Positions 6,027 to 44,104 of a stretch of DNA of 64,000 bases are shown here, in pieces. The notes beneath the pieces are model-generated. The model had not been told where the DNA came from and made no database searches. It saw only the letters and a program-made list of their open reading frames with translations. The number at the start of each line of letters is the position of its first letter. The stretch's first letter is position 1. Source of the DNA: an uncultured Nostoc sp. (lineage in GTDB: Bacteria; Cyanobacteriota; Cyanobacteriia; Cyanobacteriales; Nostocaceae); contig NZ_CALMFY010000162.1 of assembly GCF_937863485.1 (NCBI RefSeq), positions 7,377 through 71,376 on the forward strand. Direction: 5' to 3'. The translations under genes and the position numbers were made by a program.

Positions 6027-6127
6027 GACAATCTTGGGGCAGAAAGCAAGAATATCTTAGTATTGCCTATAACAACCCCCTAAAAAATTACCTTTGGTCA
6101 AGATGCAGTATTTTTTTTCAAATCCTC

Positions 6128-7507
6128 TCAATATAATTTTACCCAGGATAATAAATTTTCCCACCAGGAATATGTCAGATTACCAATACTCAGCTTCATT
6201 TTGTTGCGAATGTCTTGGATATTCCAGTTGGTTAGTTTAGCTAGAGTTTGCGCCTCTTGTTCAAAACGCTTGGGCAAAGACTGCTTATATTCTCTACCTG
6301 CCTGACATTTGAGTTCCCCTTGGAAGGGATGTTGCAAAACATAACGCCCTTGAAAAGATTCACTGTTTGCAGTTTGTTGGAATATCAGGTCTTCAGGGAA
6401 TTTGTCGCGGGTGTAGCGGACATGCAGCCGGGAGATGAAGACGTTACTTCTAGGAGAGGGACGACGAAAGCTGGGGGATGCTGGCAGATTACTTTCAGAA
6501 TTATCATCTAGCCAAAATACGCCTGCTTGCTTTAGTTCATCTTGGGTTAGGGGATCAGCAGAACAGGGATCGCAACTACTCATGTCCCAAGCGTATTCCA
6601 AAAAACCAACTTTCCTATCTTCTTTGGTGTAGACAGTTTGAAACATAGATTTGTAGAATTCACCAAATTCATCTTTGACAAACAAAGGAATGTTCGTGTT
6701 AGAAGGGATTTTCACTGTCCGGTAATTAGTGATTTCTGCCTGTCCTTGGGGCGAGAGGATGTAGACAATCAAATCCTGCTCTGTTGTAGCATTGATCATG
6801 CCTAAACGAATTGGCAGCATGAATTTGGGTGACTGGTAGGAAATTTGTAACGGACGAAGGAACTGGTAGCCAGATTTCTCGAATTTATCCAAGTTGACTT
6901 TGGCAACAAAGAATTTCATTGAGGAGCGGATGTAGGGCTTTAATAACTGTTTCGCACCTCTGGGAATTTTGTAGCCATTGCCTTTGAGCCAAGTTTCTAG
7001 TCCCCCAGATTCTTTGGCACTAAGGATCACGATGTCGTATTCGCCGACGTTGAAACGTGCTTCGACTGTTACACCCAAACTAGCATCACCGCGTCTCCTA
7101 CTCTCTGGCTCATTGCTTGCGCGTCCTCTAGGTGCCGCAGCAGGTAGATTTACCGAATCAGTAATAGCACAAGGATCTGAGTCAAAATATTCTACCAATC
7201 GCGGCGCACTAAAAGCATCCAAGCGCTCGATAATTTTCGGTTCAGTTACGCGAACTTGCTCTTTTTGCAGCACCGTTGGCACAGGTACTACTATTGCAAA
7301 ATCTTTGACTTCGCCTTGAAAGTCGTTTGCCATTGTTAGGACAGTGCGTTCCTCATCCCGTGCTATCACGACCTGAGAAGCTTTGTTATACAGTTTTGTA
7401 TCAGCCTTCGCTACATAAAATCCACAAAATGCCCAAGCTGCGGGTGCGAAGCATAAAACAGCTACAATTGTCAACAATAATGGTGTTAAGAGTCGAAAAA
7501 ACTTCAT
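6128..7507 (-). CDS. DUF2330 domain-containing secreted protein
   Basis: A 459-residue exported protein. A signal peptide ends at AWA before the first mature residues FCGFYV (cleavage near residue 26). The body matches the DUF2330 family, including the characteristic start region with a conserved Cys and the segment FAIVVPVPTVL; a CDPCS motif near residue 315 suggests further Cys pairs. A C-terminal hydrophobic, Trp-rich tail (YSWWENLLSWVKLY) may associate with membrane. Biochemical function is unknown. The RnfD-like gene lies immediately upstream on the same strand, separated by tandem palindromes. Confidence 0.8.
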   Translation of the reverse strand: MKFFRLLTPLLLTIVAVLCFAPAAWAFCGFYVAKADTKLYNKASQVVIARDEERTVLTMANDFQGEVKDFAIVVPVPTVLQKEQVRVTEPKIIERLDAFSAPRLVEYFDSDPCAITDSVNLPAAAPRGRASNEPESRRRGDASLGVTVEARFNVGEYDIVILSAKESGGLETWLKGNGYKIPRGAKQLLKPYIRSSMKFFVAKVNLDKFEKSGYQFLRPLQISYQSPKFMLPIRLGMINATTEQDLIVYILSPQGQAEITNYRTVKIPSNTNIPLFVKDEFGEFYKSMFQTVYTKEDRKVGFLEYAWDMSSCDPCSADPLTQDELKQAGVFWLDDNSESNLPASPSFRRPSPRSNVFISRLHVRYTRDKFPEDLIFQQTANSESFQGRYVLQHPFQGELKCQAGREYKQSLPKRFEQEAQTLAKLTNWNIQDIRNKMKLSIGNLTYSWWENLLSWVKLY

Positions 7508-29285: not shown

Positions 29286-30314
29286 CTAAGGAACAGAACC
29301 ATATCCGAGAGATGGAGCTAAAGCTTTTGCAGCTGTAATGAACCCTTTAAAGTCTAAGTCTGAGTAATACAAGAAATAAGTTGCTCCGGAAATGGGATAA
29401 GCACCTGCACTCTTAGGATCGGTCAAATTATCAATTCTAGTCAGCTGCTTATTAGTACCGTATGTTACAACAGTCCCATCTTTAATAGCCGCTGTAATTG
29501 AAGCTGGTGAGACAGCAATATACTTACCTGCCTTGTTAAGTAAGAGTGCGGCAGGTAGCTTTTTAGTTAAACGGGTAGCATTATCCACATAACCAATTGC
29601 ACCTTTAGTACTTGCGATCACATCGCCTACCTTTCCGCCACCAGTAGCGCTAAGGAAAGTGCTTGTCCAATTAACAGTTGTACCCACTCCTCCCTTCCAT
29701 ACATTAGCTGCTGGAACACCTGGAGTCTTACATGCAGCATTGAGATGACTGCTTAAAACAAAAGTGCTACCACTTGAGTCAGCACGACGTACAACTTTGA
29801 TGGGTAGATTGAGTGCTATTTGGCGACCGTTATCTGCACTAATGCTCTTATCGTTCCAATTTTTGATGCTACCGTTCAAAATACCACAGTAACTAGCTCG
29901 TGAAAGCTTAAGTCCTGCTGGTAGACCACTAGTGTTGTTAAAAGCTAATGTGATTCCGACACTTACCACAGGCACTTGGACGTAACCACGACCGCCAGTA
30001 ACTTTTTCTGTTCCTGCTACAGGGTCGTCACTAGCTGCAAAAGTGAGTGGGCGAGGAGTACCAGCTGGTGGAGTTTGAGTGAAAAAAGCTTTTAACCCTG
30101 CGCCACTACCATTTGCAGTATATGTGAATGCGAACTTCGATTTTAGATCTGTAAATAAAGCACTTACAGTACTTGCACCTACACCATTACCTATATTGGG
30201 CGCAGCTAGAGATATCAGAGTAGCAGATTGAGCTACTACTAAACCAGTTGCTATAGCAAGTACAGAAATTGAACTTGCCAAGTAGGTCAATGGACGATCG
30301 CGATAAAAAGCCAT
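29286..30314 (-). CDS. pstS: PstS-like phosphate-binding ABC transporter substrate protein
   Basis: Periplasmic high-affinity phosphate binder. The 342 residues have an N-terminal signal segment (YLASSISVLAIATGLVVA) and the PstS pattern: GAGLKAFF (near 68), FAASDDPVA, ILNGSIKNWND, RADSSGSTFVLSSHL with the phosphate-contacting Ser/Gly loop, and GAIGYVDNA. Start at 30312-30314 is chosen over an ATG 15 bp upstream because AGGAG lies 6-7 bases before it. No pstC, pstA, pstB or phoU is adjacent, so this is an orphan copy. Confidence 0.82.
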   Translation of the reverse strand: MAFYRDRPLTYLASSISVLAIATGLVVAQSATLISLAAPNIGNGVGASTVSALFTDLKSKFAFTYTANGSGAGLKAFFTQTPPAGTPRPLTFAASDDPVAGTEKVTGGRGYVQVPVVSVGITLAFNNTSGLPAGLKLSRASYCGILNGSIKNWNDKSISADNGRQIALNLPIKVVRRADSSGSTFVLSSHLNAACKTPGVPAANVWKGGVGTTVNWTSTFLSATGGGKVGDVIASTKGAIGYVDNATRLTKKLPAALLLNKAGKYIAVSPASITAAIKDGTVVTYGTNKQLTRIDNLTDPKSAGAYPISGATYFLYYSDLDFKGFITAAKALAPSLGYGSVP

Positions 30315-30329
30315 GTCTTGCTCCTTCAA

Positions 30330-31833: not shown

Positions 31834-33069
31834 ATGAATAAGACTAATCTGTACAAACAACGTCAAAACAAAAACAGGGTATCAATTTTAACTTCCGTGG
31901 CTGTTTTGGCTTCTCCATTGGTATTGCCTTTACATCAAGCTGTTGCTGCATCATTGACTACTGTTGCAAATTTCAACGGTGCTAATGGATCTGCGCCAAG
32001 AGCTGGTGTATTTCAAGGTAAGGATCTCAATCTTTATGGAACCACTTCTGCTGGTGGCTCATCTAACAACGGAAGTGCATTCAAGTTGAGTGGTGCCGGT
32101 TTCAGTACTCTGACCACACTGATCAACTTTACGGGAACAGCCCTACCCAACAGAGGGACTAATCCAATCGCTAGATTATTCCAGGCAAGCAATGGCAATT
32201 TATATGGGGCGACCTTTACAGGTGGCGCAAGTAACCTCGGTACATTGTTTAGCTTGGCATCACCAGCTTTTACAGGTCTGACAACTTTTGTGAATTTTAC
32301 TGGCATCAGTAATGGAGCTAACCCAGCAGGCCGACTGATTGCGGATAGCACTGGCAAGGTTTTGTGGGGGACAACCTCGGCAGGTGGGGCCAGTAATAAA
32401 GGAACTATATTCAATGTTCCGCTGGGTGGCAGTCCAGTCACCACTGTAATCAGCTTCACCGGTACTAATGGAGCAACCCCATTAGCAAGATTGCAACTGG
32501 TGACTACCAATGGAAGCTACTATGGCACTGCCTCTTTAGGTGGAGCAAGTAATAAAGGAGTTGTATTCAAGTACACTCCTGCTAATCCTATTGCTACTAG
32601 GTACAGTTTTTCTAGCTTTACTGGCGCTAATGGGGCAAGTCCAGAGGCTGGATTAACTGTATTTAGCGGATTCCTCTACGGCACTACTAGGCTAGGTGGA
32701 GCCAGCAATGTAGGTGCTATATTCAGAGTTCCAATTGGAACAGCCACCAGTCCTATCGGTGCACCGGTTTTAGTTGCCAGTTTTAGTGGCGCTAATGGGG
32801 CCAACCCAAAGGCTGCGCTTACACCAGGAGCAAGCAGTGGTATCTTCTATGGCAGAGCTTCTACTGGCGGGGCAAATAACAAAGGAGTTGTCTATAAATT
32901 GAATGTTGGAACTACTTCAACTTCAACTATCACCCAGTTGATTAATTTTAATGGCACTAATGGGGCAACGCCAGAGTCCACGCTAATTCCGGTCGGTACT
33001 GATTATTACGGTACTGCCTCTGCTGGTGGCACTTCTGGTAAAGGAACTGTATTTAAATTTACACCATAG
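31834..33069 (+). CDS. Secreted GloVer-type tandem repeat protein
   Basis: A 411-residue exported protein. A signal peptide (about 1-38) ends at AVAAS. The rest is about eight repeats of roughly 45-50 residues, each with FNGANG or FTGTNG, then a short spacer, LYGTT or YGTAS, then GGASNKG and a V/I-F-K strand. This matches the choice-of-anchor tandem repeat (GloVer) family, probably a beta-propeller or solenoid. No PEP-CTERM or LPXTG anchor is visible at the C-terminus. Function unknown; a surface or extracellular role is likely. Confidence 0.8.
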   Translation: MNKTNLYKQRQNKNRVSILTSVAVLASPLVLPLHQAVAASLTTVANFNGANGSAPRAGVFQGKDLNLYGTTSAGGSSNNGSAFKLSGAGFSTLTTLINFTGTALPNRGTNPIARLFQASNGNLYGATFTGGASNLGTLFSLASPAFTGLTTFVNFTGISNGANPAGRLIADSTGKVLWGTTSAGGASNKGTIFNVPLGGSPVTTVISFTGTNGATPLARLQLVTTNGSYYGTASLGGASNKGVVFKYTPANPIATRYSFSSFTGANGASPEAGLTVFSGFLYGTTRLGGASNVGAIFRVPIGTATSPIGAPVLVASFSGANGANPKAALTPGASSGIFYGRASTGGANNKGVVYKLNVGTTSTSTITQLINFNGTNGATPESTLIPVGTDYYGTASAGGTSGKGTVFKFTP

Positions 33070-33229: not shown

Positions 33230-34128
33230 AATCTACGTGCAAAATAAATAGTAAAACGTAGATTTGAAAAATGTTGATTAATTACTTTTAGATAGTCAGG
33301 AAGCATGGCTATCTGAAAGTAATTATGGACAGTGGGAGAAACTAAATTTCCTAAAATGGAAATAAAATTGCTGCAATTAATGACGTTATAATAATTTATA
33401 CATAATTTCTCTGAGATTATCTCCGTCTAATTGCCCATAATTAAGACAACCTCATCCCGCCTATAGCTAAAGCTACAGGCTCCATGCCTCTAATCCCCAC
33501 TTCGTAGGGGCATTGAGTTTCACTACTAGGGGAAGGGCTGCTCTTGAGAGGTCACGCACGAATCACAAGTAATTTGCCAGACATCATATGAAATGCCTAA
33601 TAATGCCCAATCAGCTTTAAGAGGTTATCAGTGATAGCATAGATAGTAATAATTTAATTCAACATAAATCCCTTTTAATTTTTCTCTGGAGGGGATTTTA
33701 TTCCTTAAATGATCTCGTTGCGATCGCCTGAATCAATAACTGGCAACTTGGGTTAGTAGTACATCCTATCAGGATAATATCTTACAAAACGGTTGCTTGT
33801 AGAGAATAAAATGTTTTTCTATAGAAGCTGTAACTATCGCTATTGATGACTCTGGTGAGATAATAACGAGTTTAAACGATGAAGTCAGATTTGTCAGGGA
33901 ATTAGCGATACCTGGCGGCAAGCCCTACGGGTGACGCTCGTACCTTTATACTTAATTAAAGAAATATTAATGCTTTCTTAACTTAACTTAATACGAATTT
34001 ATGTATAGTATAGAACTTTGCTAAACTTTATAAGTTGAGGAAAAATGAGTATTCAATCATGTAAAATTGGAAACGATTGTAAAATTTTAGACAACCAACA
34101 CTCAAGTACATTATAGGAAAATTAGCAA
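33230..34128. other. Non-coding leader of the secretion cluster
   Basis: About 900 bp without a credible gene. Contains a hairpin GCCTATAGCTAAAGCTACAGGC near 33459, a heptamer-type repeat near 33908 (CCTGGCGGCAAGCCCTACGGG), and AT-rich sequence just before 34129 where the promoter of the cluster should lie. Confidence 0.45.
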
Positions 34129-34746
34129 ATGTCTAGACAAAGTTCTCACAAGAGAAACTTTTTCAAAGCTTTAACTGGTAGCGCTGTCAAAGGATCTCAG
34201 AAGTTAAGACTGGGACTGGAATCCAGCTTGATTATTCTGGTTGAATCTATACCTTTTTTGATTGCTTGTGCTGTATTTATAAGCGTTATCAGCCTAAAAA
34301 GTCCTATCCTGCTTTTTTGTTTACTAGTTGGTAGTTTAATTGCAGTCATTACCCAGCAAATTGGGCAGCAGGTGAATTTACCAAAGCGCTCGCTAATATT
34401 ATTACAAATTTTAGCAGCAGCTATCATTCTGAGTTTGTATTGGTTAGACTGGTTTGCAGCCCCCGCACAAGCACAGTTTTTTGGGGAAGCTGAAAAGTTT
34501 TTCAAAAGAAACTTGGGTGGAGCACAGGCAGCTGGTGGTGGTAGTGAGACAGCAATAAGTTTGATATTTAATGTGTTGCGGGCGATTTATTTACTCTATA
34601 TTGCAATTTCTCTGGTTGGTGTGATTAACGCAGTGCGTAAAGATGAAGATTGGCAAAGCATTGCTAGAACTCCCCTATTAGTTGTTGTTGCTGTTACCAT
34701 TGCTGATGTACTCACACGCTTTGTAATTGGTCCACAAGGGCAGTAA
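34129..34746 (+). CDS. VirB2-like pilin candidate, first gene of a type IV secretion-like cluster
   Basis: A 205-residue, very hydrophobic protein. Three N-terminal membrane segments (about 33-54, 60-80, 88-109) are followed by an AxA-type cleavage site, PAQAQFF, near residue 116. After a Gly-rich linker come two further helices (about 150-170 and 183-200) joined by a short charged loop VRKDEDW. The processed C-terminal part has the size and hairpin topology of VirB2/TrbC pilins. The extended N-terminus is unusual. Assignment comes from topology plus the VirB3/VirB4-like genes directly downstream. Confidence 0.55.
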   Translation: MSRQSSHKRNFFKALTGSAVKGSQKLRLGLESSLIILVESIPFLIACAVFISVISLKSPILLFCLLVGSLIAVITQQIGQQVNLPKRSLILLQILAAAIILSLYWLDWFAAPAQAQFFGEAEKFFKRNLGGAQAAGGGSETAISLIFNVLRAIYLLYIAISLVGVINAVRKDEDWQSIARTPLLVVVAVTIADVLTRFVIGPQGQ

Positions 34747-34764
34747 ATAATTCAGATATTTCAA

Positions 34765-35136
34765 ATGTCTCAAGAGCGGGAACAAGAATTTCGTCCAGTC
34801 AATCAGGTTCTAGGAAGCCAACCTTCATTAGGACCAATCCCTGCTGATCAAATTCTTCCTTGGACGGTAATTGCCTTAGCCTCCTACTTTATTATCAATG
34901 GAATTTTTGGGGGGATTTTCCAAGAAGAGTTTCAAAAATGGTTGTGGACAATACTCATGACTGGTTGGGGAATCGGAACTTGGTGGATCTTAACTGGTGG
35001 TAGAAGTTGGAGTTTTTTAAGTAAATTTATTGGTGTTCCCGCTTGGACAAGAGGCTTTGCTCGTTATCAAAGCTTACTGGAAGTTAACCATGAAGCAAAA
35101 AATCGGAAAACAAAGCGTCAGCGTCGCCGGAAATGA
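34765..35136 (+). CDS. VirB3-like small membrane protein
   Basis: A 123-residue protein with two adjacent membrane helices (about 32-54 and 60-78) and a strongly basic C-terminal tail (KNRKTKRQRRRK). Small size, two-helix topology and position immediately before the VirB4-like ATPase match VirB3/TrbD, which links the pilin to the ATPase in type IV systems. It begins 18 bp after the pilin-like gene, and its 3' end overlaps the start of the next gene by about 47 bp. The sequence itself shows no diagnostic motif. Confidence 0.5.
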   Translation: MSQEREQEFRPVNQVLGSQPSLGPIPADQILPWTVIALASYFIINGIFGGIFQEEFQKWLWTILMTGWGIGTWWILTGGRSWSFLSKFIGVPAWTRGFARYQSLLEVNHEAKNRKTKRQRRRK

Positions 35137-37837
35137 AAGTAGATTAACACCATTTGAAGATGCCTTACACTTGGCGACAATGCTACGTGTAGCAATGAAT
35201 GGACGTGATATTGGCGCTTACCTTTTGACAAAAGGCACTCAAAAAGATAGGTTCTGCTTTGTTTTTGGTTTTGACTGTAAGGGAATCCATCCCACTTTAA
35301 GACCGGAACAAATAGATACACTTTTTAATAACATTGAAGCAGGATTGAAAGATATCCCTAGCGGTGAAAGAATGACACTGCATTTGGGATCTTTTAGTTC
35401 CGACAAAGAGCGCCAAAAAGAATTAGCAACATTAATCAGAAATGCGCCATCACGAGATATCAAATATTTGTTGATGGCGGAAAGAGCTAGAGTTAAAGAA
35501 CTTACTATTTCTGGTGTTCGGAAGCCAAAATTTTTACGAATTTACGTCACTTACACGATTGAATCTAACTCGCAACATGCAGACGATTGGATAGAGAAAC
35601 TTTTAGTCAAAGCTGAATCATGGTGGTTGAAATTCAAAGGGGATCTCTCAGAAGTAGAAAACCAACGCATTGAAACCTTGATCACAAATGCTTACAAACA
35701 GGGTTTTCTCCGTTGGGAACAAATTTTATCTAACCAAATGGGATTGGATGTCAAGCCTTTGAGAGCTGATGAACTCTGGAAGGAGATATGGAAAAGGTTT
35801 AATGATACAGAACCAATAGAGATTCCCCAGTTGATGACTTTAGATGAACAAGGACTACATGAGCAAGTTAATTCAGATTTAGCTAGTACTAAATTGCTTA
35901 TAGACAATATCCACGGCACAACTTTGCTGATGGAGTCTAGCGTACCTTGTGCCGATCGCCGCTGGGTAAATGTTAACAATCGTTATATTGGCGCACTGTC
36001 ATTTCTGGAAAAACCCGGAGGTTGGCCCAATAAGTCTGCTCAACTGCGCTATTTATGGGAACTGTTGGCCAGAGAAAGAGTAGTAGATACAGAGATTTTT
36101 TGTGAGTTGACGGCGGCAAATCCAGCATTAGTGAAAACTACTTTGCAACGAGTCTTGAAACAGTCAAACATGACGACAATCATGGCTCAAGAAAAAAGTA
36201 AAACTATTGATGTCAACGCTCAATTAAAGTTGAAGAAATCGGTAGCAGCACAAGAACAATTATTTGAAGGTGCAGTACCAATCTATACGAGCATAGCTAT
36301 TTTGGTACATCGTCCAACTGTAGAGAAATTAGATGAGGCAACAAGATATATTGAAAACTGTTTTCAACGTCCAGCAAGGGTAATTAGGGAAACTGAGTAC
36401 GCCTGGAAAACTTGGCTGCAAACTCTACCGATAGTTTGGGAGGGTTTGTTAGCAACACCCTTCAACCGTCGCCAGCTATATTTAACAAGTGAAGTTCCCG
36501 GATTAATGCCTTTAGTTTTAACTAAACAAGGTGATAGACAAGGCTTTGAGTTGATTGCTGAAGAAGGCGGAACACCCGTACATTTAGATTTATTTAATCA
36601 ACACAAAAATTTAGCTTTGTTTGCCACAACTCGTGCTGGGAAATCGGTGTTGGTATCAGGGATTTTAACTCAGGCTTTGGCGCATGGCATTCCTGTAGTG
36701 GCGTTAGATTTCCCTAAACCCGATGGCACATCTACTTTCACTGACTACACAGAGTTTATGGAGGGGAATGGAGCCTATTTTGATATCTCTAAACAATCGA
36801 ATAACTTATTTGAACAGCCAGACTTACGATCGCTAGAACCAGAACAACAGCGCGATCGCTTTAACGATTATACCGCCTTCCTAGAATCAGCTTTAATGAC
36901 AATGGTTTTAGGATCATCGACTGAAAGTCAAATTTTATCGCAAACCGTGCGATCGCTGCTTAACTTAGCATTAGAAGCCTTCTTTGCTGATCAGGGCATA
37001 AAAGAGCGATATATACAGGCGATGGCAGGGGGATTTGGCACTCAGGCTTGGCTGAAAACTCCTACCTTAAAAGATTTTCTGTTTTTCTGTTCATCAGAAC
37101 ACTTGCAGCTAAGTTCTTTAACTGGCAGAGTAGAAGATGCCCTCAGTCAAATTCAGCTGCGCTTGCGGTTTTGGCTTTCTAGCCGCGTGGGACAAGCTAT
37201 TTCTGCACCATCCAGCTTTCCTACCGATGCACAACTTTTAGTTTTTGCTCTCAGAAACCTATCAGATAGTGAAGATGCAGCCGTACTATCTTTGAGTGCC
37301 TATTCAGCAGCATTACGACGCGCACTCAGCAGCCCAGCTTCTATATTCTTCATTGATGAAGCACCAATTTTATTTGAATTCGAGCAAATTTCTGACTTAG
37401 TTGGCAGAATTTGTGCGAACGGTGCTAAAGCCGGTATCAGAGTCATCTTATCAGGACAAGATCCTGATACTATTGCCAAATCTAAAGCTGCATCTAAAAT
37501 TTTGCAAAACCTGACAACACGATTGATTGGACGCATTCAGCCAGTTGCAGTGGATAGTTTTGCAGACATCTTAAAGTATCCCCGCCAAATTATTTCTCGT
37601 AATGCGTCGGAAAGCTTTTTTCCCCGCAAAGAAGGCGTTTATAGCCAATGGCTGCTAGATGATAACGGTATTTATACATTCTGTCGTTACTATCCAGGTT
37701 ACGAACAATTGGCAGCAGTTGCTAATAACCCCTCTGAACAAACTGCACGCAGTAAAATGATGCAACTTCACAGCAATAAATATGAAGCAATTTCTGCATT
37801 TGCACGTCAGTTAGTGGCTACTCTACGTAGTAGTTAA
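35090..37837 (+). CDS. VirB4/TraC-like type IV secretion ATPase
   Basis: A 915-residue ATPase that would energise assembly of, and transport through, the channel. Walker A ATTRAGKSVL lies near residue 513; Walker B IFFIDEAPILFEF near residue 753; a downstream ILSGQDPDTIAKS segment fits the VirB4 sensor region. The N-terminal 450 residues resemble the VirB4/TraC oligomerisation domain. The start at 35090 (MKQKIGKQ) is preferred over an ATG-less extension at 35030. It overlaps the VirB3-like gene, indicating translational coupling. This is the best supported component of the cluster. Confidence 0.85.
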   Translation: MKQKIGKQSVSVAGNESRLTPFEDALHLATMLRVAMNGRDIGAYLLTKGTQKDRFCFVFGFDCKGIHPTLRPEQIDTLFNNIEAGLKDIPSGERMTLHLGSFSSDKERQKELATLIRNAPSRDIKYLLMAERARVKELTISGVRKPKFLRIYVTYTIESNSQHADDWIEKLLVKAESWWLKFKGDLSEVENQRIETLITNAYKQGFLRWEQILSNQMGLDVKPLRADELWKEIWKRFNDTEPIEIPQLMTLDEQGLHEQVNSDLASTKLLIDNIHGTTLLMESSVPCADRRWVNVNNRYIGALSFLEKPGGWPNKSAQLRYLWELLARERVVDTEIFCELTAANPALVKTTLQRVLKQSNMTTIMAQEKSKTIDVNAQLKLKKSVAAQEQLFEGAVPIYTSIAILVHRPTVEKLDEATRYIENCFQRPARVIRETEYAWKTWLQTLPIVWEGLLATPFNRRQLYLTSEVPGLMPLVLTKQGDRQGFELIAEEGGTPVHLDLFNQHKNLALFATTRAGKSVLVSGILTQALAHGIPVVALDFPKPDGTSTFTDYTEFMEGNGAYFDISKQSNNLFEQPDLRSLEPEQQRDRFNDYTAFLESALMTMVLGSSTESQILSQTVRSLLNLALEAFFADQGIKERYIQAMAGGFGTQAWLKTPTLKDFLFFCSSEHLQLSSLTGRVEDALSQIQLRLRFWLSSRVGQAISAPSSFPTDAQLLVFALRNLSDSEDAAVLSLSAYSAALRRALSSPASIFFIDEAPILFEFEQISDLVGRICANGAKAGIRVILSGQDPDTIAKSKAASKILQNLTTRLIGRIQPVAVDSFADILKYPRQIISRNASESFFPRKEGVYSQWLLDDNGIYTFCRYYPGYEQLAAVANNPSEQTARSKMMQLHSNKYEAISAFARQLVATLRSS

Positions 37838-37922
37838 TCGGGTTCTGTAAGCAGTTAACAGTGTTTAAAAAAGTTATAAATCATAGTTAAAAAGCTAAAT
37901 TACCTTTTTCAGGCACAAATGT

Positions 37923-38798
37923 ATGCGAAAAACTACCATTTTTACTCTGACGTTGCTATCTCTGGCAATCCTACCAGCAATGGCACAAGTTCAACTGGGA
38001 GGTGGATTAGGCGAGGTTTGGACTAATTTTAAATCATATTCCACAGATATGGGAAAATACTTTCAAAATAATCTGAGCGAAAACTTAAACCCTGTAGAAA
38101 CACAGAGCCGAAATGCTCTTGATAGTGCCAAGGGAAATACAGAATTGAAGATACCTAACCCCGTCGATGCGGGGCAAAATGTTCGTGATAACATTATCAA
38201 CGAATCTTATCGTTCAGAATCTAAAGCAAGCCGCTTTGAAAATAATGCAGCAGTACGGGCAAATTTAGTTAGTAATGAACTCAATCGTTTTATTACTCGT
38301 GGAGCAGCAGAAGCTATTCTTGGTAAAGATGGACAAAATCGGACACAAGTAAAGTTAGAAAATACTGAAAATACACTAAAAGATATTGACGCAATTAGCG
38401 ATACGGCGGGGGCAGGGAACAACCTAGATAGTGTTAGATTTGATAATTTAAGTAAGGGATTAAAGCAAGCTGCAATAGATGCGGGTGCAGTAGCGACTCT
38501 TTCGGGTTTATCAGAGTTAGGAAAAATCCTAAATGAAAATAACTTGCAAACTATTAAGATTCAACGGGCACAATCAGCAATTATAGGTGAAACATTTGCT
38601 CAGACAATACAAACGAATCAGTCTTTGCAATATTCTAATTTAAATTTAGCAAACATTTCTCAGCAGGCAGAAGAGGCGAATCGCGCTCGCAGAGTAGATA
38701 CATCTACAGAAGCAGCGCGACTTTTACGAGCTACTTCTCAACTAGATTTGTTTGGCAGAAAAGTTGGTAAGTCGGATTTTAGGATAAAAAAACTCTAA
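37923..38798 (+). CDS. Secreted helical protein, VirB5/TrbJ-like by position
   Basis: A 291-residue exported protein with a clean signal peptide (cleavage near AMA-QVQ, residue 22). The mature part is rich in Asn, Ala and Gln and predicted helical, with coiled-coil character around residues 60-130 and 215-270. VirB5/TrbJ proteins are periplasmic helical bundles that sit at the pilus tip or assemble the channel, and the gene lies in the matching place between VirB4- and VirB6-like genes. There is no diagnostic motif, so the role is inferred. Confidence 0.45.
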   Translation: MRKTTIFTLTLLSLAILPAMAQVQLGGGLGEVWTNFKSYSTDMGKYFQNNLSENLNPVETQSRNALDSAKGNTELKIPNPVDAGQNVRDNIINESYRSESKASRFENNAAVRANLVSNELNRFITRGAAEAILGKDGQNRTQVKLENTENTLKDIDAISDTAGAGNNLDSVRFDNLSKGLKQAAIDAGAVATLSGLSELGKILNENNLQTIKIQRAQSAIIGETFAQTIQTNQSLQYSNLNLANISQQAEEANRARRVDTSTEAARLLRATSQLDLFGRKVGKSDFRIKKL

Positions 38799-38846
38799 TT
38801 TTCCATACAATTTTTAAAATTCTTAAAGTTTTTACAAACCAACAGT

Positions 38847-38955
38847 AAATCTAAAAAAACGGTTTGCTAGGGTGCTTTAGCGACAGCCTAACGCACCGAA
38901 AGCATCCTGGATGGTGCGTTACGTTCCTAACGCACCCTACGAAATCTAAAAAAAC
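38847..38955. repeat. Repeat insertion flanked by a 14-bp direct repeat
   Basis: AAATCTAAAAAAAC occurs at 38847-38860 and again at 38942-38955. Between them are 81 bp with terminal inverted repeats (TAGGGTGC...GCACCCTA) and an inner palindrome of CTAACGCACC with GGTGCGTTAC. This looks like a mobile miniature element with its target duplication, inserted just before the VirB6-like gene. Confidence 0.75.
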
Positions 38956-38971
38956 AGCCCATCAACTCAAA

Positions 38972-40033
38972 ATGCAACTTGCTATTCAACTAATTTTTGC
39001 CCAAGTAGGTGTCCAAGTAGGCATTGATGAGGTTCTCGATAATGGTGCCGTAACTTCTCTAAGTATTGCCGAAGGTTGGAATAAACAATGGCTGGATTTA
39101 TTACAAAATAATACCAGTAATAACTTGTATGGAGCGCTGACAAATCTGGGTATTTTTTTTGCGGTAGGAACCCTGTTATTTTTTATGATACAATTCCTCA
39201 AAGACTTAATATCCTACGAATATAGTCGTCCAATATCAGCTTTAATTTGGCCTTTTGTGGTGGTGATCCTTTTAAGTAATTCAGGGAAGGGAAGTATCCT
39301 TTCTAATCTGACACTGGGAGTCAGGGATTTTTTAAACACTGTGAATCAGCAAGTAGTGGTATCAGCAGATGCGGGTAAAATGTACCAACAAGCACTGAAT
39401 ATGAGTGTTGCTGAAGAAGTAACTGGTTCTTTTCTGCGTCCTTGCCAATCGCTAACTGGCGCTCAACAAAGTCAATGCTTTGTCAGCGCTGCCGATAAAG
39501 TCAATATTCTCTTGCAGAAATATAGAAATACATACGGAAGTAAAATTTGGATATATAGGCTACAAACTAAGTTAGATAATATTAGATATAACAAAGGCTT
39601 TGTATCAGAAACCTCATTTAATTCTTTGTTAGGTTCTACAGTCCAAACAAGCATCAAAAACTTTTTAGTTTCCTTACAATATGCCTTCCAGAATTTGATA
39701 GAAGCTACTATGTTGCTGATAGCGGTTTTAGGGCCAATAGCCGTAGGTGGGTCTTTACTGCCTGTAGCTGGTAAACCAATTTTCGCATGGGTGACGGGAT
39801 TTTTATCTATTGGAATCGCCAAAATTTCATTCAATATTATTGCTGTGCTGACTGCCGCAGTTATTGTAAATGGGCCAGGCCAAAATGCTAATGCTGATCC
39901 AGACTTAATGTGGTTCATAATTTTTCTGGGAATTTTAGCACCAATTTTATCATTACTTGTGGCTGCTGCTGGCGGTTTTGCAGTCTTCAGTGCTATCAGT
40001 AATACGGCTTCTTTAGTAAAGGAGAGGATATAG
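38972..40033 (+). CDS. VirB6/TrbL-like polytopic membrane protein
   Basis: A 353-residue protein with an N-terminal segment resembling a signal (LAIQLIFAQVG), a membrane helix pair around residues 55-105, a large extracytoplasmic loop (about 110-220, with a Cys pair), and at least four C-terminal helices ending in a Gly/Ala-rich hydrophobic stretch. This is the layout of VirB6/TrbL, the inner-membrane core of type IV channels. The ATG at 38972 is preferred because the upstream extension lies in the inserted repeat. Confidence 0.6.
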   Translation: MQLAIQLIFAQVGVQVGIDEVLDNGAVTSLSIAEGWNKQWLDLLQNNTSNNLYGALTNLGIFFAVGTLLFFMIQFLKDLISYEYSRPISALIWPFVVVILLSNSGKGSILSNLTLGVRDFLNTVNQQVVVSADAGKMYQQALNMSVAEEVTGSFLRPCQSLTGAQQSQCFVSAADKVNILLQKYRNTYGSKIWIYRLQTKLDNIRYNKGFVSETSFNSLLGSTVQTSIKNFLVSLQYAFQNLIEATMLLIAVLGPIAVGGSLLPVAGKPIFAWVTGFLSIGIAKISFNIIAVLTAAVIVNGPGQNANADPDLMWFIIFLGILAPILSLLVAAAGGFAVFSAISNTASLVKERI

Positions 40034-40050
40034 GAAATTCCAAATTCCAA

Positions 40051-40146
40051 ATGAATAAAATTTTGGCAAGTGTCGTAATTGCTGAATTATATGCAAATGA
40101 TAATTTATATAGAATAGCTGAAGTTTTTTGCGGAAGAGGTGAGTAA
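40051..40146 (+). CDS. Possible 31-codon open reading frame abutting the next gene
   Basis: ATG at 40051 to TAA at 40144-40146 encodes 31 residues starting MNKILASVVIAELYA; the next gene's ATG follows with no gap. The position between VirB6- and VirB8-like genes is where small VirB7-type lipoproteins occur in other systems, but there is no lipobox, only one Cys near the end. It may instead be a leader region. Weakly supported. Confidence 0.3.
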   Translation: MNKILASVVIAELYANDNLYRIAEVFCGRGE

Positions 40147-40971
40147 ATGGTGCGTTTACTGGAAAAAAGACAATCAATAGCAAGTGTTTTGACACTTTTT
40201 GCGATCGCAACCTTCGGTTTACATATATTAGTTTTATTTTTCTTCTTATTACAAGGGCTAAATATTCGCCAACTCAGTCTGAGAAAACCTCCCAACTTTG
40301 TGCAATTAATCGACGGTAAACCAGTAGGTAATATCGATGATTTAGCAAGAGATCCAGAAGCAATTCGCCAATTCATCAGCAAAACGATGATATCAATGTT
40401 TAGCTGGTCTGGAACCTTGCCACCACAAAATATCGAAGAAGTTGCAAACCCCAAACCAGATTTAGGAGTTCTTATTCAAACACCTCAAGCGAGTAGCCAA
40501 AAAGTTAGTACCAGCAGTTGGATAGCTAGTTTTGCCTTGTCCGAAGACTTTCGCAAAGGTTTCTTAAGCACAGTTGCAGAAATGACACCGCCAGAAGTTT
40601 TCTCTGAAAATCCCAGCTTAGCTATGACATCACAATTAGTTATTAAGCGGGTTTATCCGCCAAAACAAATTGCACCAGGAAAGTGGCGAGTGGGTATGGT
40701 AGCTGACTTAATTCAAAAAAACCGAGTTGGTGGTGCAAAACTCATAACTCCTTTTAACAAAGATTTACTTGTACGTGCAGCAGATTATTTTGGTAATCCC
40801 CAAGGCGACAATGGTACAGACTTGCAAAAAGCAATTTATAGTGTCCGCGCTGATAGATTAGAAATTTATGAAATTCGGAACTTATGTTTGCTAGATGGCA
40901 ACAACGGACTTAACAATGATAAATTTACACAATGCGGCGCTGGACAAACATCTGATAGCTTTATCAGATGA
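40147..40971 (+). CDS. VirB8-like bitopic membrane protein, copy 1
   Basis: A 274-residue protein with one membrane helix near the N-terminus (about 12-36) and a periplasmic domain. Segments PEAIRQFISKTM near 75 and GKWRVGMVADLI then FNKDLLVRAADY recur in the next gene. VirB8/TrbF proteins have the same topology with an NTF2-like periplasmic domain that scaffolds the channel. GGAAGAGGTGAG upstream supplies a strong ribosome binding site. Assignment by topology, position and pairing. Confidence 0.5.
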   Translation: MVRLLEKRQSIASVLTLFAIATFGLHILVLFFFLLQGLNIRQLSLRKPPNFVQLIDGKPVGNIDDLARDPEAIRQFISKTMISMFSWSGTLPPQNIEEVANPKPDLGVLIQTPQASSQKVSTSSWIASFALSEDFRKGFLSTVAEMTPPEVFSENPSLAMTSQLVIKRVYPPKQIAPGKWRVGMVADLIQKNRVGGAKLITPFNKDLLVRAADYFGNPQGDNGTDLQKAIYSVRADRLEIYEIRNLCLLDGNNGLNNDKFTQCGAGQTSDSFIR

Positions 40972-40982
40972 GTAGGTAGACA

Positions 40983-41007
40983 GAGACGCGATTAATCGCA
41001 TCTGTAC
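40983..41007. repeat. Dispersed palindromic repeat between the VirB8-like genes
   Basis: The same unit as at 7540-7601 with one change in the right arm (GACGCGATTAATCGCATC then TGTAC). It lies 12 bp after the stop of the first VirB8-like gene. Confidence 0.85.
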
Positions 41008-41106
41008 TGGGGAGTAGGGAATCAGCCTTTTCGAGTTGTACAGAGTTTTTTAAAAAATCAAATAAGACCTATAGATTTATAATTCACTAATTTTATATAA
41101 ATATAA

Positions 41107-41811
41107 ATGCAAATACTCAAACCAGAAAATAGGAAAAATAACCCATTGCCACTGTTGGCAGTCGGAACATTTGGGTTAAATGTATTTACCCTGCTTTTAC
41201 TACTATTTAACGGGTCTATGTTACAGCAATTAGGTCGTCAACTCACACCTCAAAGTTTAGTGCAGCTTGTTGATGGTCGCACTATAACCGTAGACCCCCA
41301 ACCAAATTTAGAGCGACAGCCAGAGGCGATTCGGCAGTTTGTGGGTGAAACTATGAGCTTAATGCTTACTTGGTCAGATCAACAGCCGCCAACGCAAGTC
41401 TGGGAAATTACCTCCCAACTGGTAGCTGATAATTTTAAACAAAAACTTAAGTCAGAACTTACCAATTTAAATCCAGATAGCCAATTTGAAAATGTTAATA
41501 GAGGAGCAGAAAATGTATTAGTAATTCAAAAAATCTCTCAACCTACAAAAATAGGTGATGGACAGTGGAAAGTGGAGATGTTTGCTAATCAATTAGTTTT
41601 TAACGGTTATGATAGGTTGGGAAAATCAATTTCGTTTAATAAACAAGTTTTAGTTAGAGCAATAGATGAACCCGCAACTTCCCTACCAAATGCATCACTA
41701 CCATTGCACTTCGCAGCTTACCGTCTTGGTGAAGCCAGACTAGAAATTTATAATGTATGTAATATCAAAGATAAAAATTGTTCTGGAAATCCCAACCAAG
41801 CTTTACCATGA
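41107..41811 (+). CDS. VirB8-like bitopic membrane protein, copy 2
   Basis: A 234-residue paralogue of the preceding protein: membrane helix at about 17-38, then matching motifs SLVQLVDGR, PEAIRQFVGETM, GQWKVEMFANQLV and FNKQVLVRAID. It ends with a Cys-containing tail (CNIKDKNC). The TGA overlaps the ATG of the VirB10-like gene by one base pattern (ATGA), showing translational coupling. Two tandem divergent copies are unusual for type IV systems. Confidence 0.55.
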   Translation: MQILKPENRKNNPLPLLAVGTFGLNVFTLLLLLFNGSMLQQLGRQLTPQSLVQLVDGRTITVDPQPNLERQPEAIRQFVGETMSLMLTWSDQQPPTQVWEITSQLVADNFKQKLKSELTNLNPDSQFENVNRGAENVLVIQKISQPTKIGDGQWKVEMFANQLVFNGYDRLGKSISFNKQVLVRAIDEPATSLPNASLPLHFAAYRLGEARLEIYNVCNIKDKNCSGNPNQALP

Positions 41812-43412
41812 CTAAATACTCAATTCCTGCGGAAACACCTCCTCAAAATGGATTTACTCTAACCACCGATGCTCACCAACAAGATGTAGAATCTTTTGAT
41901 TGGGAATCGCGGATGTCAAGGTTGGTCGGCTTTGAAGAAGAATTTTCTACCGATACCCAAGGATCAGAAGACTCTGCAACGCCGCAAGAGTCGCTTTCTC
42001 AACCACAAGAAGTTCAGACTAAGCAAGCCCTCTCATCTAATCCCTTTGCAAAATTAGGCTTGGTAGGGGCTGCTACCTTAGCGATAGTTTTGGTGGGTGG
42101 TGTGTTTTTGTCCCAGTTGATGAGTAGCAGCAATTCAAAGCCAAAAAATATTGTTTCTCCACAAGTATCATCGCAGCCAACTAATGAATCTAGCTCTCAA
42201 CAGCTAGAAACAGATTTAGATACTTACAAAACTAAATTAGCCCTGACTGAACAAGCAGAGTCAGTGAAAGCCGCCCAACAACAGCTCAGAATTGCTAAAT
42301 CAACGCCGACAGTAGCCTTAAAAGCAGAACCGTCAGTTTCTTCCAGAGGTAGAGAGAGAGTGATCCCAACACCTCCACCAACAGTTTACCCACCTCGGAC
42401 AGTGACAGTTGAGCGCATCGTTAAAGTACCTGCTTCTCAACCTTTGCCATCACCCCAAATACCAGTTGTGCAGCCAAACACTCAACCCGTAGTCAATATA
42501 ACTCCACCATCTCCACCAACCCCATTACAAGAGTGGGCAAGGTTAGCAAAGTTAGGTAGCTACGGTCAAGTAAGTCTCACTGATCAACCTAATAACATCG
42601 CAGCTGCTCCTGAGCCTGCAAACAATACGCAGCCGCAGGAACAGACACCACAACCGGAAACTCCTGCTCCTGTGGTCAGCCAAGCGCAAGAGAAGGGAGA
42701 GAAATCTGTAGCAGTAGGAAGTAGTGCTAAAGCTGTGTTAGCAACAGCGATATTTGGGGAAACTAATACTAAATCAGGCGGTGGTGATGAAACAGGTGAA
42801 CAGAAAAACGTATTTGTGATCCGATTGAAAGAACCACTAAAATCTACCGATGGTTCGATTGCTCTACCTGCAAACACCGAATTCCTCGCTGAAATTGGTT
42901 CCCTTTCCGAACAAGGTCTTTTGTCCATGAATGTAGTCAAAATTATCTCGCATAATGATGGCAACCTTACAGAACGAAGCTTACCTAACAATACAATTAT
43001 TCTTCGCGGTACCCAAGGTAAACCTTTAATTGCAAATAAATTTCCCAGTTCAAGTTCGTCGATAGCATCGATGGATGCAGGACTATTCGTTTTGGGAGGT
43101 ATTGGTAAAGCAGCAGAGTTAGTAAATCGTGCTGATACTGAATACCAACTAGTTAATACTGCACCAGTTGTCACTACCGACGGCACTCCTACTACCACCA
43201 ACGTCCAACCATACCAACAGCTTATTCCTGTCACTAAGAACAGACGCAATCTTGCAGCTGCGGTTCTGGAAGGTGGTATGAACTCTGTAGTTCCCCAGAT
43301 TGCCCAACGTAATCAACAATCGATCGCCCAAATGTCACAACAAACTAATGTTTGGTTTTTGCCAGCCGGTACAAATATTGAAATATACGTTAATCAAGCA
43401 ACCCAGTTTTAA
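41808..43412 (+). CDS. VirB10/TrbI-like channel protein
   Basis: A 534-residue protein: cytoplasmic N-terminus (about 1-80), one membrane helix (LGLVGAATLAIVLVGGVF, about 84-104), a coiled stretch, a Pro-rich periplasmic linker (about 175-290), and a C-terminal beta domain with ALPANTEFLAEI and the final WFLPAGTNIEIYVNQ. This is the VirB10/TrbI architecture, the protein that spans the envelope and transmits the ATP signal. The start at 41808 overlaps the previous stop. Confidence 0.68.
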   Translation: MTKYSIPAETPPQNGFTLTTDAHQQDVESFDWESRMSRLVGFEEEFSTDTQGSEDSATPQESLSQPQEVQTKQALSSNPFAKLGLVGAATLAIVLVGGVFLSQLMSSSNSKPKNIVSPQVSSQPTNESSSQQLETDLDTYKTKLALTEQAESVKAAQQQLRIAKSTPTVALKAEPSVSSRGRERVIPTPPPTVYPPRTVTVERIVKVPASQPLPSPQIPVVQPNTQPVVNITPPSPPTPLQEWARLAKLGSYGQVSLTDQPNNIAAAPEPANNTQPQEQTPQPETPAPVVSQAQEKGEKSVAVGSSAKAVLATAIFGETNTKSGGGDETGEQKNVFVIRLKEPLKSTDGSIALPANTEFLAEIGSLSEQGLLSMNVVKIISHNDGNLTERSLPNNTIILRGTQGKPLIANKFPSSSSSIASMDAGLFVLGGIGKAAELVNRADTEYQLVNTAPVVTTDGTPTTTNVQPYQQLIPVTKNRRNLAAAVLEGGMNSVVPQIAQRNQQSIAQMSQQTNVWFLPAGTNIEIYVNQATQF

Positions 43413-43531
43413 GAGGTAGGATTTATACTAATTTTAGATTTTGGATTGGGTAATGGTAATTGGTAATTAGTTTTCCTTCTATCTTTCCCATCTCCCCTTA
43501 TTATATCTACCAATCTACCCCATTTGCAATC

Positions 43532-44104
43532 ATGAAAAATAATACTAACTTGTCAGGAAATACCTCAAATAATTATTATTTCCTACCTATAGCTTCCTTA
43601 ATTTTCTCGGTTGCTATGTTTTTGTTAGTAGGTCGTGCTGTAGCTAATAATGCTGTTCTGCGTTCCGTATTTTCTTGCCAAGCACAGGGTTTAGGGGGAC
43701 TAATACCTACTATCAACGTTTGGTATCAACAAGGAACAAACTTAAGTTTTATTCCGGCTGGAGAAGTAATTAAAAAAGTTTGGTTAAACGATCCATCACA
43801 GGTAACTATGGATTTTGATGGCCCAGTATGTATGCAGTTTGGTCAAGATCCTAATACTAGTGGAGGAGATTGTAAAAACTCAGCAGCGAATGTCATTCAA
43901 CTTAGACGAATTAAAAAACTGGATATTCGTGGATTTCCTCCCACTAGCAATACACTTTTAACAGTTGTTACCGAAGCACAAGGTAAAAATAAGTTGTATA
44001 CTTTTCGAGTGTTATATGGAAAAGATAACCCTGAATATCACACTTTAGCAATTTTTCCCGATCCTCCTGGTCAGGAAGGAGCTTGTGCGAGAGTTTCACA
44101 ATAA
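43532..44104 (+). CDS. VirB9/TrbG-like periplasmic protein candidate
   Basis: A 190-residue protein with an N-terminal hydrophobic segment (about 20-40). The body has features seen in VirB9 N-terminal domains: LSFIPAGEVIKKVWLNDPSQ, an IQLRRIKKLDI strand, and TLLTVVTEAQ followed by LYTFRVLYG. VirB9 forms the outer-membrane core ring with VirB7 and VirB10. The order here (after VirB10) is reversed from the classical virB operon. ATG at 43532 is preferred over the TTG/ATG upstream extension. Four Cys may form disulfides. Confidence 0.45.
   Translation: MKNNTNLSGNTSNNYYFLPIASLIFSVAMFLLVGRAVANNAVLRSVFSCQAQGLGGLIPTINVWYQQGTNLSFIPAGEVIKKVWLNDPSQVTMDFDGPVCMQFGQDPNTSGGDCKNSAANVIQLRRIKKLDIRGFPPTSNTLLTVVTEAQGKNKLYTFRVLYGKDNPEYHTLAIFPDPPGQEGACARVSQ

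What the first reader, a model, noticed from the sequence alone, without database searches (positions are those of the whole stretch)
34129..44104. Type IV secretion-like channel cluster without relaxase or coupling protein
Eight co-oriented genes with tight spacing and two start/stop overlaps show the succession pilin-like, two-helix, VirB4 ATPase, secreted helical, polytopic, two bitopic, VirB10-like, VirB9-like. VirB4 Walker motifs are seen directly; the remaining roles follow from topology and order. No VirD4, VirB11, relaxase, transposase or integrase lies within the window, and the neighbours are core genes, so this may be a domesticated channel for proteins, DNA uptake or cell-cell exchange in filaments.
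Basis: partly seen in the sequence, partly recalled or inferred. Interest (0 to 1): 0.88.

Follow-up and report, generated by a model that had tools for sequence, protein, structure and literature searches.

The report
Domesticated mating machine in Nostoc chromosomes
Nostoc-type cyanobacteria carry on their chromosome a stripped-down relative of bacterial mating machinery that lacks its DNA-handling parts yet is conserved, with one exported protein that changes unusually fast, perhaps because it now makes an attachment or recognition filament instead of transferring plasmids.

Summary
The cluster is real: nine co-oriented genes (34129-44104), homologous and in the same order to the mating-pair genes of cyanobacterial (MPF_C) conjugative plasmids: VirB2, B3, B4, B5, B6, two VirB8, VirB10, shortened VirB9. 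Such plasmids also carry VirD4, a relaxase and a protein I call X9; none was found near this cluster or in 80 related loci. It does not look like an ICE: full-length orthologues of VirB4 occur in 50 of 53 genomes of the genus and at least 42 of 71 of the family, often on megabase contigs, partly congruent with a GyrA tree, under purifying selection. In 18 of 48 holders three searches found no VirD4 genome-wide. VirB5 stands out: its middle segment is hypervariable, and its amino-acid divergence is several-fold that of plasmid VirB5 at matched VirB4 divergence. I infer a domesticated, coupling-protein-free machine that mainly builds a pilus with a variable, probably adhesive tip, like Bartonella Trw; two-step protein export remains possible. 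Relaxase-less T4SSs in cyanobacteria were noted in 2011; the rest I did not find in print in six searches. New variant of a known kind.

The parts
33909..34128 (+). upstream leader, partly conserved among Nostoc loci; presumed promoter/5' UTR
   Evidence: diversity falls from 0.58 at 33600 to 0.13 at 34050; alignment; promoter role inferred, no motif identified
34129..34746 (+). VirB2-like pilin, long N-terminal extension, likely signal-peptidase site ..APAQA|QFF (read by eye)
   Evidence: blastp to genes in the pilin position of two conjugative plasmids, E 3e-29 and 5e-30; alignment; only scattered unrelated Pfam matches
34765..35136 (+). VirB3-like small inner-membrane protein
   Evidence: E 3e-23 and 1e-31 to two conjugative plasmids; position next to VirB4
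35090..37837 (+). VirB4 ATPase (915 aa from ATG 35090), Walker A ATTRAGKS, Walker B IFFIDEA
   Evidence: NCBIfam VirB4_CagE 1.9e-11, TraC-F-type 5e-14, both below the curated cut-off; ATTRAGKS in 127 and IFFIDEA in 128 of 129 sequences, which include loci seen twice; dN/dS 0.06
37923..38798 (+). VirB5-like secreted helical protein (pilus-tip candidate)
   Evidence: weak, E 8e-7 to 1e-5 to three plasmid genes in the same position; alignment; hypervariable
38334..38558 (+). hypervariable middle segment of VirB5, residues 138-212
   Evidence: mean identity 0.38, gap fraction 0.13, pooled dN 0.591 / dS 0.822, against dN 0.08-0.21 in the other four segments; diversity peak 0.51 at 38400-38550
38972..40033 (+). 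VirB6-like polytopic membrane protein (frame open from TTG 38864)
   Evidence: E 3e-29 to 2e-52 to three plasmids; alignment; only scattered unrelated Pfam matches
40147..40971 (+). VirB8 copy a (N-terminal helix + periplasmic domain)
   Evidence: E 2e-28 to 1e-60 to three plasmids; model (pLDDT 61): the first 10 Foldseek rows are T4SS entries (VirB8, TrwG, IcmL/DotI, TraM, CagV, one R388 complex chain)
41107..41811 (+). VirB8 copy b, diverged duplicate
   Evidence: E 7e-18 to 4e-39 to the single VirB8 of each of three plasmids
41808..43412 (+). VirB10 (TrbI family), Pro-rich linker
   Evidence: PF03743 2e-6, below the curated cut-off; 23 of 23 members match PF03743 at E<=0.1
43532..44104 (+). 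VirB9-like secreted protein, lacking the C-terminal stretch of the plasmid forms (frame open from TTG 43460)
   Evidence: (E 8e-26 to 3e-28), alignment; fold comparison inconclusive

Best explanation
A type IV secretion machine of the cyanobacterial MPF_C lineage was captured on the chromosome, lost relaxase, coupling protein (VirD4) and X9, duplicated VirB8, and became a resident organelle of Nostoc and relatives. Most likely mechanism: VirB4 with VirB3, VirB8a/b and VirB6 in the inner membrane polymerises VirB2 pilin on a VirB6-VirB5 platform; the filament leaves through a reduced VirB10(/VirB9) passage with VirB5 at its tip; the variable segment of VirB5 binds a changing partner surface (other cells or filaments, symbiotic hosts, or a matrix). 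Shown here: homology, gene order, conservation, constraint, absence of a recognisable T4CP, VirB5 hypervariability. Inferred: that a pilus is made, that VirB5 is at the tip, and that it is adhesive.
For: Homology and order. Retention: 50 of 53 genomes of the genus with full-length chromosomal-type VirB4, 1 interrupted (G389), 2 without (G295, G422, the latter 85% complete); 42 of 71 family genomes, a lower bound because one search scored at most two candidates per genome. Vertical signal in the family: GyrA/VirB4 distance r 0.79 (highest of 2000 permutations 0.37), 17 of 38 splits shared (highest of 500 permutations 2). Purifying selection: median dN/dS 0.06 VirB4, 0.10 VirB3, 0.14-0.21 VirB6/VirB8. 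No VirD4 found in 18 of 48 genomes, 4 of them single-contig; X9 not found in the same 18. VirB5: window against G265 has VirB4 dN 0.002/dS 0.09 but VirB5 0.252/0.37; at matched VirB4 dS the chromosomal VirB5 median dN is 0.180/0.214/0.237 against 0.022/0.076/0.069 in 20 plasmid-type loci of the genus; 7 of 14 supported VirB5 splits conflict with supported VirB4 splits. Loss of VirD4 with pilus parts kept and a variable VirB5 parallels Bartonella Trw, for which an adhesive pilus is proposed (PMC12857230 section 20 read whole; PMC2883598 abstract and outline).
Against: No experiment; no pilus seen. The VirB5 assignment rests on position, signal peptide, helical look and weak homology; no Pfam or PDB support. 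Unlike Trw, VirB2 and VirB5 are single within the locus and VirB8 is duplicated. VirB10 (0.39) and VirB9 (0.32) also evolve fast in Nostoc, so relaxed constraint on exposed parts explains some of the pattern, and VirB5 dN/dS stays below 1 (highest pair 0.976). In genus g2 VirB5 is not extreme (0.16). Some close pairs keep similar VirB5 (L004 and L172: 99%). Six of the other seven genes compared with VirB4 also show splits in conflict with it. VirB4 itself shows signs of transfer between lineages. A phage using the filament as receptor could drive the same diversity.
Confidence: 0.5

Rival explanations
1. Two-step protein exporter (Ptl/Brucella-like): Sec-exported substrates, encoded elsewhere, are taken from the periplasm and released or delivered through the machine; VirB5 varies because of the target cell.
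For: T4CP-less exporters are known. Guglielmini 2011 (passages) suggested protein secretion for relaxase-less T4SSs, naming cyanobacteria. X9-type proteins with a toxin domain exist, one beside the basal relative L213.
Against: No recurrent neighbour that could be a substrate: 7 of 88 flanking families seen in two or more loci join Nostoc and other loci, at varying distance and side. X9 not found in the own genome or in the 18 VirD4-less genomes. VirB9 is shortened, or not found in some lineages.
Confidence: 0.22
2. Conjugation helper in trans: VirD4 and relaxase of a co-resident plasmid use the chromosomal channel to send DNA.
For: 28 of 48 genomes holding the cluster match the VirD4 profile elsewhere, 2 more by Pfam TraG-D_C; the own genome has parts of a plasmid-type system and a relaxase domain.
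Against: In six genomes that I compared by position (G382, G342, G327, G383, G361, G240) VirD4 starts 9.1-9.4 kb after a plasmid-type VirB4 on the same contig. 18 genomes keep the cluster with no VirD4 found.
Confidence: 0.1
3. DNA-uptake machine analogous to Helicobacter ComB.
For: Similar core set without VirD4 and VirB11 (for ComB; VirB11 here judged from the nine genes only).
Against: ComB has no VirB5, while here a VirB5-like gene is in the window and all 61 full loci and is the fastest-changing part in Nostoc.
Confidence: 0.06
4. Septal or filament-internal conduit for exchange between cells of one filament.
For: 42 of the 48 holders belong to one family, whose members are mostly filamentous (recalled).
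Against: Not found in 29 of 71 family genomes, and present in 5 genomes of family f8 and 1 of f33; an internal conduit would not predict a hypervariable exported protein.
Confidence: 0.05
5. Decaying remnant of an integrated plasmid.
For: One decayed copy (L054/G380), one interrupted VirB4 (G389), VirB9 not found in several lineages.
Against: Full-length VirB4 in 50 of 53 genus genomes, purifying selection; frame lengths of the genes found are close to the window's in most of the 48 genomes, the two very short VirB6 frames being extraction artefacts.
Confidence: 0.03

Closest known systems
MPF_C conjugation systems of cyanobacterial plasmids (reference pCC7120alpha: alr7199 relaxase, alr7206 virB4, alr7213 virD4; PMC8600333, passages)
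   Same: Nine homologous genes in the same order; VirB4 54-61% identical to three plasmid examples.
   Different: Chromosomal; no VirD4, relaxase or X9 nearby; two VirB8; VirB9 shortened (except in the basal G165); VirB4 forms its own clade against three plasmid outgroups. pCC7120alpha itself was not held.
Bartonella Trw T4SS
   Same: Derived from a conjugation system, lost the coupling protein, kept the pilus set, variable VirB5 (PMC2883598 abstract; PMC2610397 passages; PMC12857230 section 20).
   Different: Different T4SS lineage; Trw amplifies VirB2 and VirB5-B7, here VirB8 is duplicated and VirB5 is single; host adhesion shown for Trw, nothing shown here.
Helicobacter ComB, Bordetella Ptl, Brucella VirB (T4CP-less systems)
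   Same: No VirD4 (PMC12857230 section 20).
   Different: ComB and Ptl lack VirB5; no linked substrate genes recognised here.
Relaxase-less (MOBless) T4SSs of Guglielmini 2011
   Same: T4SS without nearby relaxase; cyanobacteria named among holders (passages).
   Different: That survey scored the lack of relaxase; here VirD4 and X9 are not found genome-wide in some species, and orthology and VirB5 diversification are followed.

Membership tests
Type IV secretion system, MPF_C lineage | VirB4 ATPase of the cyanobacterial type | tested here: met
Type IV secretion system, MPF_C lineage | neighbouring MPF genes in the plasmid order | tested here: met
   extra VirB8 copy. The published MPF_C profiles themselves were not available
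Type IV secretion system, MPF_C lineage | VirB8 fold | tested here: met
   low-confidence model of copy a only (pLDDT 61)
Type IV secretion system, MPF_C lineage | VirB9 fold | tested here: inconclusive
Conjugative element / ICE | relaxase near the T4SS | tested here: not met
   (one plasmid relaxase as query, window and 80 loci); PF03432 matches in the own genome lie on contig C19. Other relaxase families were not run
Conjugative element / ICE | coupling protein VirD4 | tested here: not met
   none near the cluster; none found genome-wide in 18 of 48 holders
Conjugative element / ICE | integrase at the element's edge | tested here: inconclusive
   one plasmid integrase used as tblastn query, no match; no general integrase profile was run
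Bartonella Trw-type adhesive T4SS | no T4CP | tested here: met
Bartonella Trw-type adhesive T4SS | several variant copies of VirB2 and VirB5 | tested here: not met
   one of each within each full locus; G379 has a second, partial locus; variation lies between strains
Bartonella Trw-type adhesive T4SS | adhesion to target cells | not testable with these tools
   needs mutants
ComB DNA-uptake system | no VirB5 | tested here: not met
   VirB5-like gene present in the window and all 61 full loci

The most novel reading that the evidence does not exclude
A near-core organelle of Nostoc: a VirB pilus, freed of coupling protein, with an outer-membrane passage reduced to VirB10 plus a shortened or absent VirB9, whose VirB5 tip alleles are exchanged between strains and act as a recognition code (kin, filament or symbiotic partner), possibly under phage pressure.
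Probability: 0.3. Interest if true: 0.82.

Novelty: new variant of a known kind. Interest (0 to 1): 0.62.

Why it matters
The T4CP-less T4SSs named in the 2025 review section are from animal-associated bacteria. A chromosomal one in a large group of free-living and plant-symbiotic cyanobacteria would show that conjugation machines become cell organelles outside pathogens. VirB5 variation gives a direct test of whether a pilus tip sets partner specificity, and genomes in which no VirD4 was found give clean strains for asking what a T4SS does without one.

Tried and rejected
Searching the solved-structure library with profiles of VirB9, VirB8a, VirB10, VirB6 and with the VirB4 sequence gave no matches; VirB5 gave 8 low-scoring entries, the best a designed coiled coil (0.0014, my reading of its name), none named as a T4SS protein. 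Pfam on members of the VirB2, B5, B6, B8a and B9 alignments gave only scattered matches that I take for chance. The VirB9 model gave no T4SS match in the 50 rows shown. Neighbour search for a substrate: of 88 flanking families seen in two or more loci, 7 join Nostoc loci with others, the largest 14 loci, on either side and at varying distance; ORFs were crude (ATG starts, 70 aa or more). Presence/absence of the cluster on a GyrA tree of 69 family genomes needs at least 8 changes, so loss or transfer happens; VirB4 of G381 and G191 is nearly identical although GyrA is not, probably a transfer. Literature: searches listed no paper whose title or shown abstract start describes this conserved Nostoc cluster, and the passages I read in some of them did not either; two key MPF classification papers were not held. 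VirB11 was not searched by profile.

Caveats on counts: counts were made by eye from the listings; one search scored at most two candidates per genome. VirB5 frames of L250 and L251 start at an internal Met (193 aa) and were left in. One search's 129 sequences and one search's 31 loci include loci fetched twice (L024 and L175 are identical). Two Nostoc loci without a VirB5 on the contig (L013, L025) were dropped, leaving 33; loci lacking any of the nine genes were dropped, leaving 30. In one search G229 and the second G379 copy had no GyrA partner, leaving 47 of 49; G229 and G142 had only the paralogue-like GyrA match. dN and dS are from my own Nei-Gojobori script; pairs are not independent.
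Full report
WHAT IS THERE. The window lies in a 7.5 Mb, 250-contig genome; its nearest VirB4 relatives among named genomes are Desmonostoc and Nostoc. Between 34129 and 44104 nine genes run on the + strand. Direct family matches are few: VirB4 to NCBIfam VirB4_CagE (1.9e-11) and TraC-F-type (5e-14), both under the curated cut-off, and VirB10 to Pfam TrbI (2e-6, under the cut-off), which all 23 members of the VirB10 alignment match at E<=0.1. The other roles come from comparison with plasmids.

COMPARISON WITH PLASMIDS. VirB4 has relatives in 114 plasmid records, 54 typed conjugative, 22 mobilizable, 38 non-mobilizable. I read three stretches of plasmids typed MOBV (Allocoleopsis pMIC7113.01, Trichormus variabilis plasmid A, Nostoc TCL26-01 plasmid B). 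blastp pairs the nine window genes with plasmid genes in the same order, not every gene in every plasmid, VirB5 only weakly. VirD4 is seen in two of the three stretches, confirmed by three Pfam families, and a Pfam Relaxase domain in plasmid A. All three have one further gene after VirB9, here called X9. Both window VirB8 genes match the single plasmid VirB8. The VirB8a model is of low confidence (pLDDT 61), but its first ten Foldseek rows are all T4SS entries of the VirB8/TrwG/DotI/TraM/CagV kind or an R388 complex chain. The VirB9 model is inconclusive; the alignment shows the window form and 17 relatives lacking the C-terminal stretch that the three plasmid forms and the basal G165 form have.

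CONSERVATION. In 80 loci of named genomes the full nine-gene block in the same order is found in 61; 19 deviate: 12 end at a contig end, 1 (L013) shows no VirB5 in the 934 bases left to the contig end, 4 lack VirB9, 1 is decayed, 1 rearranged. No VirD4, relaxase, X9, CyRepA or integrase match with the plasmid queries was found in the 80 or in the window. Of 88 flanking families seen in two or more loci only 7 join Nostoc loci with others, so the block is the conserved unit. Among 388 genomes of the order, VirB4 matches fall into a group of 70% identity or more (48 genomes including the own) and the rest at 63% or less (at most two candidates scored per genome, long list cut); 42 of the 48 are among 71 genomes of the family, 5 in family f8, 1 in f33. 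In the own genus 50 of 53 genomes have a full-length copy at 91% or more, one is interrupted, two have none (all candidates scored but for one genome). Of the 47 copies fetched, 18 lie on contigs of 4.9 to 8.6 Mb. In f8 all five loci seen, one of them on a Gloeothece plasmid, differ in gene order or orientation.

DESCENT AND SELECTION. GyrA and VirB4 trees of 41 family genomes agree far beyond permutation (r 0.79 against at most 0.37 in 2000; 17 of 38 splits against at most 2 in 500); over all 47 the signal is weaker (r 0.68 against at most 0.52; 18 of 44 splits against at most 2). Against a plain vertical reading: f8 members nest inside the Nostocaceae VirB4 tree, VirB4 of G381 and G191 is nearly identical while GyrA is not, more than half of the splits differ, and presence needs at least 8 changes on the GyrA tree. 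Median dN/dS in the genus set (14 genomes, two of them from other genera of the family) is 0.06 (VirB4), 0.10 (VirB3), 0.14 (VirB6), 0.17 and 0.21 (VirB8b, VirB8a), 0.23 (VirB2), 0.32 (VirB9), 0.39 (VirB10), 0.46 (VirB5).

NO COUPLING PROTEIN. A profile of two plasmid VirD4s finds matches in 28 of 48 genomes. Of the other 20, two match Pfam TraG-D_C and the remaining 18 match neither that nor T4SS-DNA_transf. Four of the 18 are single-contig, three more have 3 to 5 contigs. X9 is found in 27 of 48 and in none of the 18. The own genome has a VirD4 fragment at a contig start (C180) and VirB2-VirB3-VirB4 start at a contig end (C94), which I take for a second, plasmid-type system. A T4CP too divergent for these three searches cannot be excluded.

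THE VARIABLE TIP. Along 31 Nostoc loci nucleotide diversity is 0.05 to 0.26 in most of the cluster and reaches 0.51 in the middle of VirB5. Some pairs with 97-98% VirB4 identity have VirB5 at 75-78%, others keep similar VirB5. Window against G265: VirB4 dN 0.002/dS 0.09, VirB5 0.252/0.37. The raised dS points to allele replacement rather than fast point mutation alone. In residues 138-212 mean identity is 0.38 and pooled dN 0.59, against 0.08-0.21 in the other segments; dN/dS there is 0.72. Control: in 20 plasmid-type loci of the same genus, at VirB4 dS 0.02-0.15, 0.15-0.30 and 0.30-0.50, VirB5 median dN is 0.022, 0.076 and 0.069 (29, 28, 29 pairs), against 0.180, 0.214 and 0.237 (25, 90, 271 pairs) in 33 chromosomal loci. 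In the middle bin plasmid VirB5 also has raised dS (1.95 times VirB4), so plasmid alleles seem to be exchanged too. Seven of 14 supported VirB5 splits conflict with supported VirB4 splits; the other genes show 4 of 11 (VirB2), 0 of 4 (VirB3), 4 of 14 (VirB6), 3 of 10 (VirB8a), 4 of 10 (VirB8b), 5 of 19 (VirB10), 2 of 11 (VirB9). Not all lineages are extreme: in genus g2 VirB5 dN/dS is 0.16.

INTERPRETATION. The kept set (pilin, VirB3, VirB4, VirB5, VirB6, VirB8, VirB10) includes the parts of the R388 pilus-assembly model as described, with its own cautions, in the 2025 review (PMC12857230; section 20 read whole, other passages seen); the lost set (relaxase, VirD4, perhaps X9) handles substrates. 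Together with the variable VirB5 this resembles Bartonella Trw, for which an adhesive, variable pilus is proposed (PMC2883598 abstract and outline; PMC2610397 passages). Diversity and recombination of virB5 are also described for the Bartonella VirB/D4 system, which has a T4CP (PMC3391547 passages), so VirB5 variation alone does not prove absence of secretion. I put the pilus model at 0.5 and domestication as such at about 0.9.

NOVELTY. Relaxase-less T4SSs were noted in cyanobacteria in 2011 (PMC3158045, passages). In six literature searches (listings seen, passages of some) I found no account of this conserved cluster, of VirD4-free genomes carrying it, or of its VirB5 variation; most subscription papers are not held, so this is no proof of novelty.

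Noticed in passing
L213:6422-8773 (-) and 6060-6422 (-): Beside the most basal relative of the cluster (G165) a divergent ORF joins an X9-like N-terminus to an Ntox50 toxin domain (PF15542, 2.7e-24), followed by a 120-aa ORF that could be its immunity gene (position only).
   Followed up: partly
L086:21877-23076, L087:22280-24112 and 120 listed relatives: X9, the MPF_C protein between VirB9 and VirD4, has one N-terminal part and different C-terminal ends: of 120 listed relatives 35 carry PF01551 (peptidase M23), 2 Ntox50, 1 PF18451; others look lysozyme-like by eye (no Pfam match in the two plasmid forms). It may be a VirB1-like wall hydrolase carrier that sometimes carries toxins.
   Followed up: partly
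L214 (own genome C94) and L001 (C180): Parts of a second, plasmid-type MPF_C system in the same genome, at contig ends, with a 1298-aa ORF and an integrase-like ORF upstream (labels by eye).
   Followed up: partly
L078, L079, L080, L082, L212, L200, L207: VirB9 not found in the locus in several lineages; L080 has two extra small ORFs between VirB6 and VirB8a.
   Followed up: partly
L054 and L197 (G380): Decayed copy: VirB6, VirB8a and VirB9 not found, VirB8b reduced to a stub, while VirB4 is full length.
   Followed up: no
rows for G274, G379, G306, G220: Several plasmid VirD4 matches contain one in-frame TAG; whether it lies inside the gene is not known.
   Followed up: no
window 31834-33069 and 29286-30329: A repeat-rich secreted protein without Pfam match at E 0.1 and a phosphate-binding-like protein (label by eye) lie upstream; relatives of one or both recur upstream in several Nostoc loci, the second in up to three copies.
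   Followed up: no
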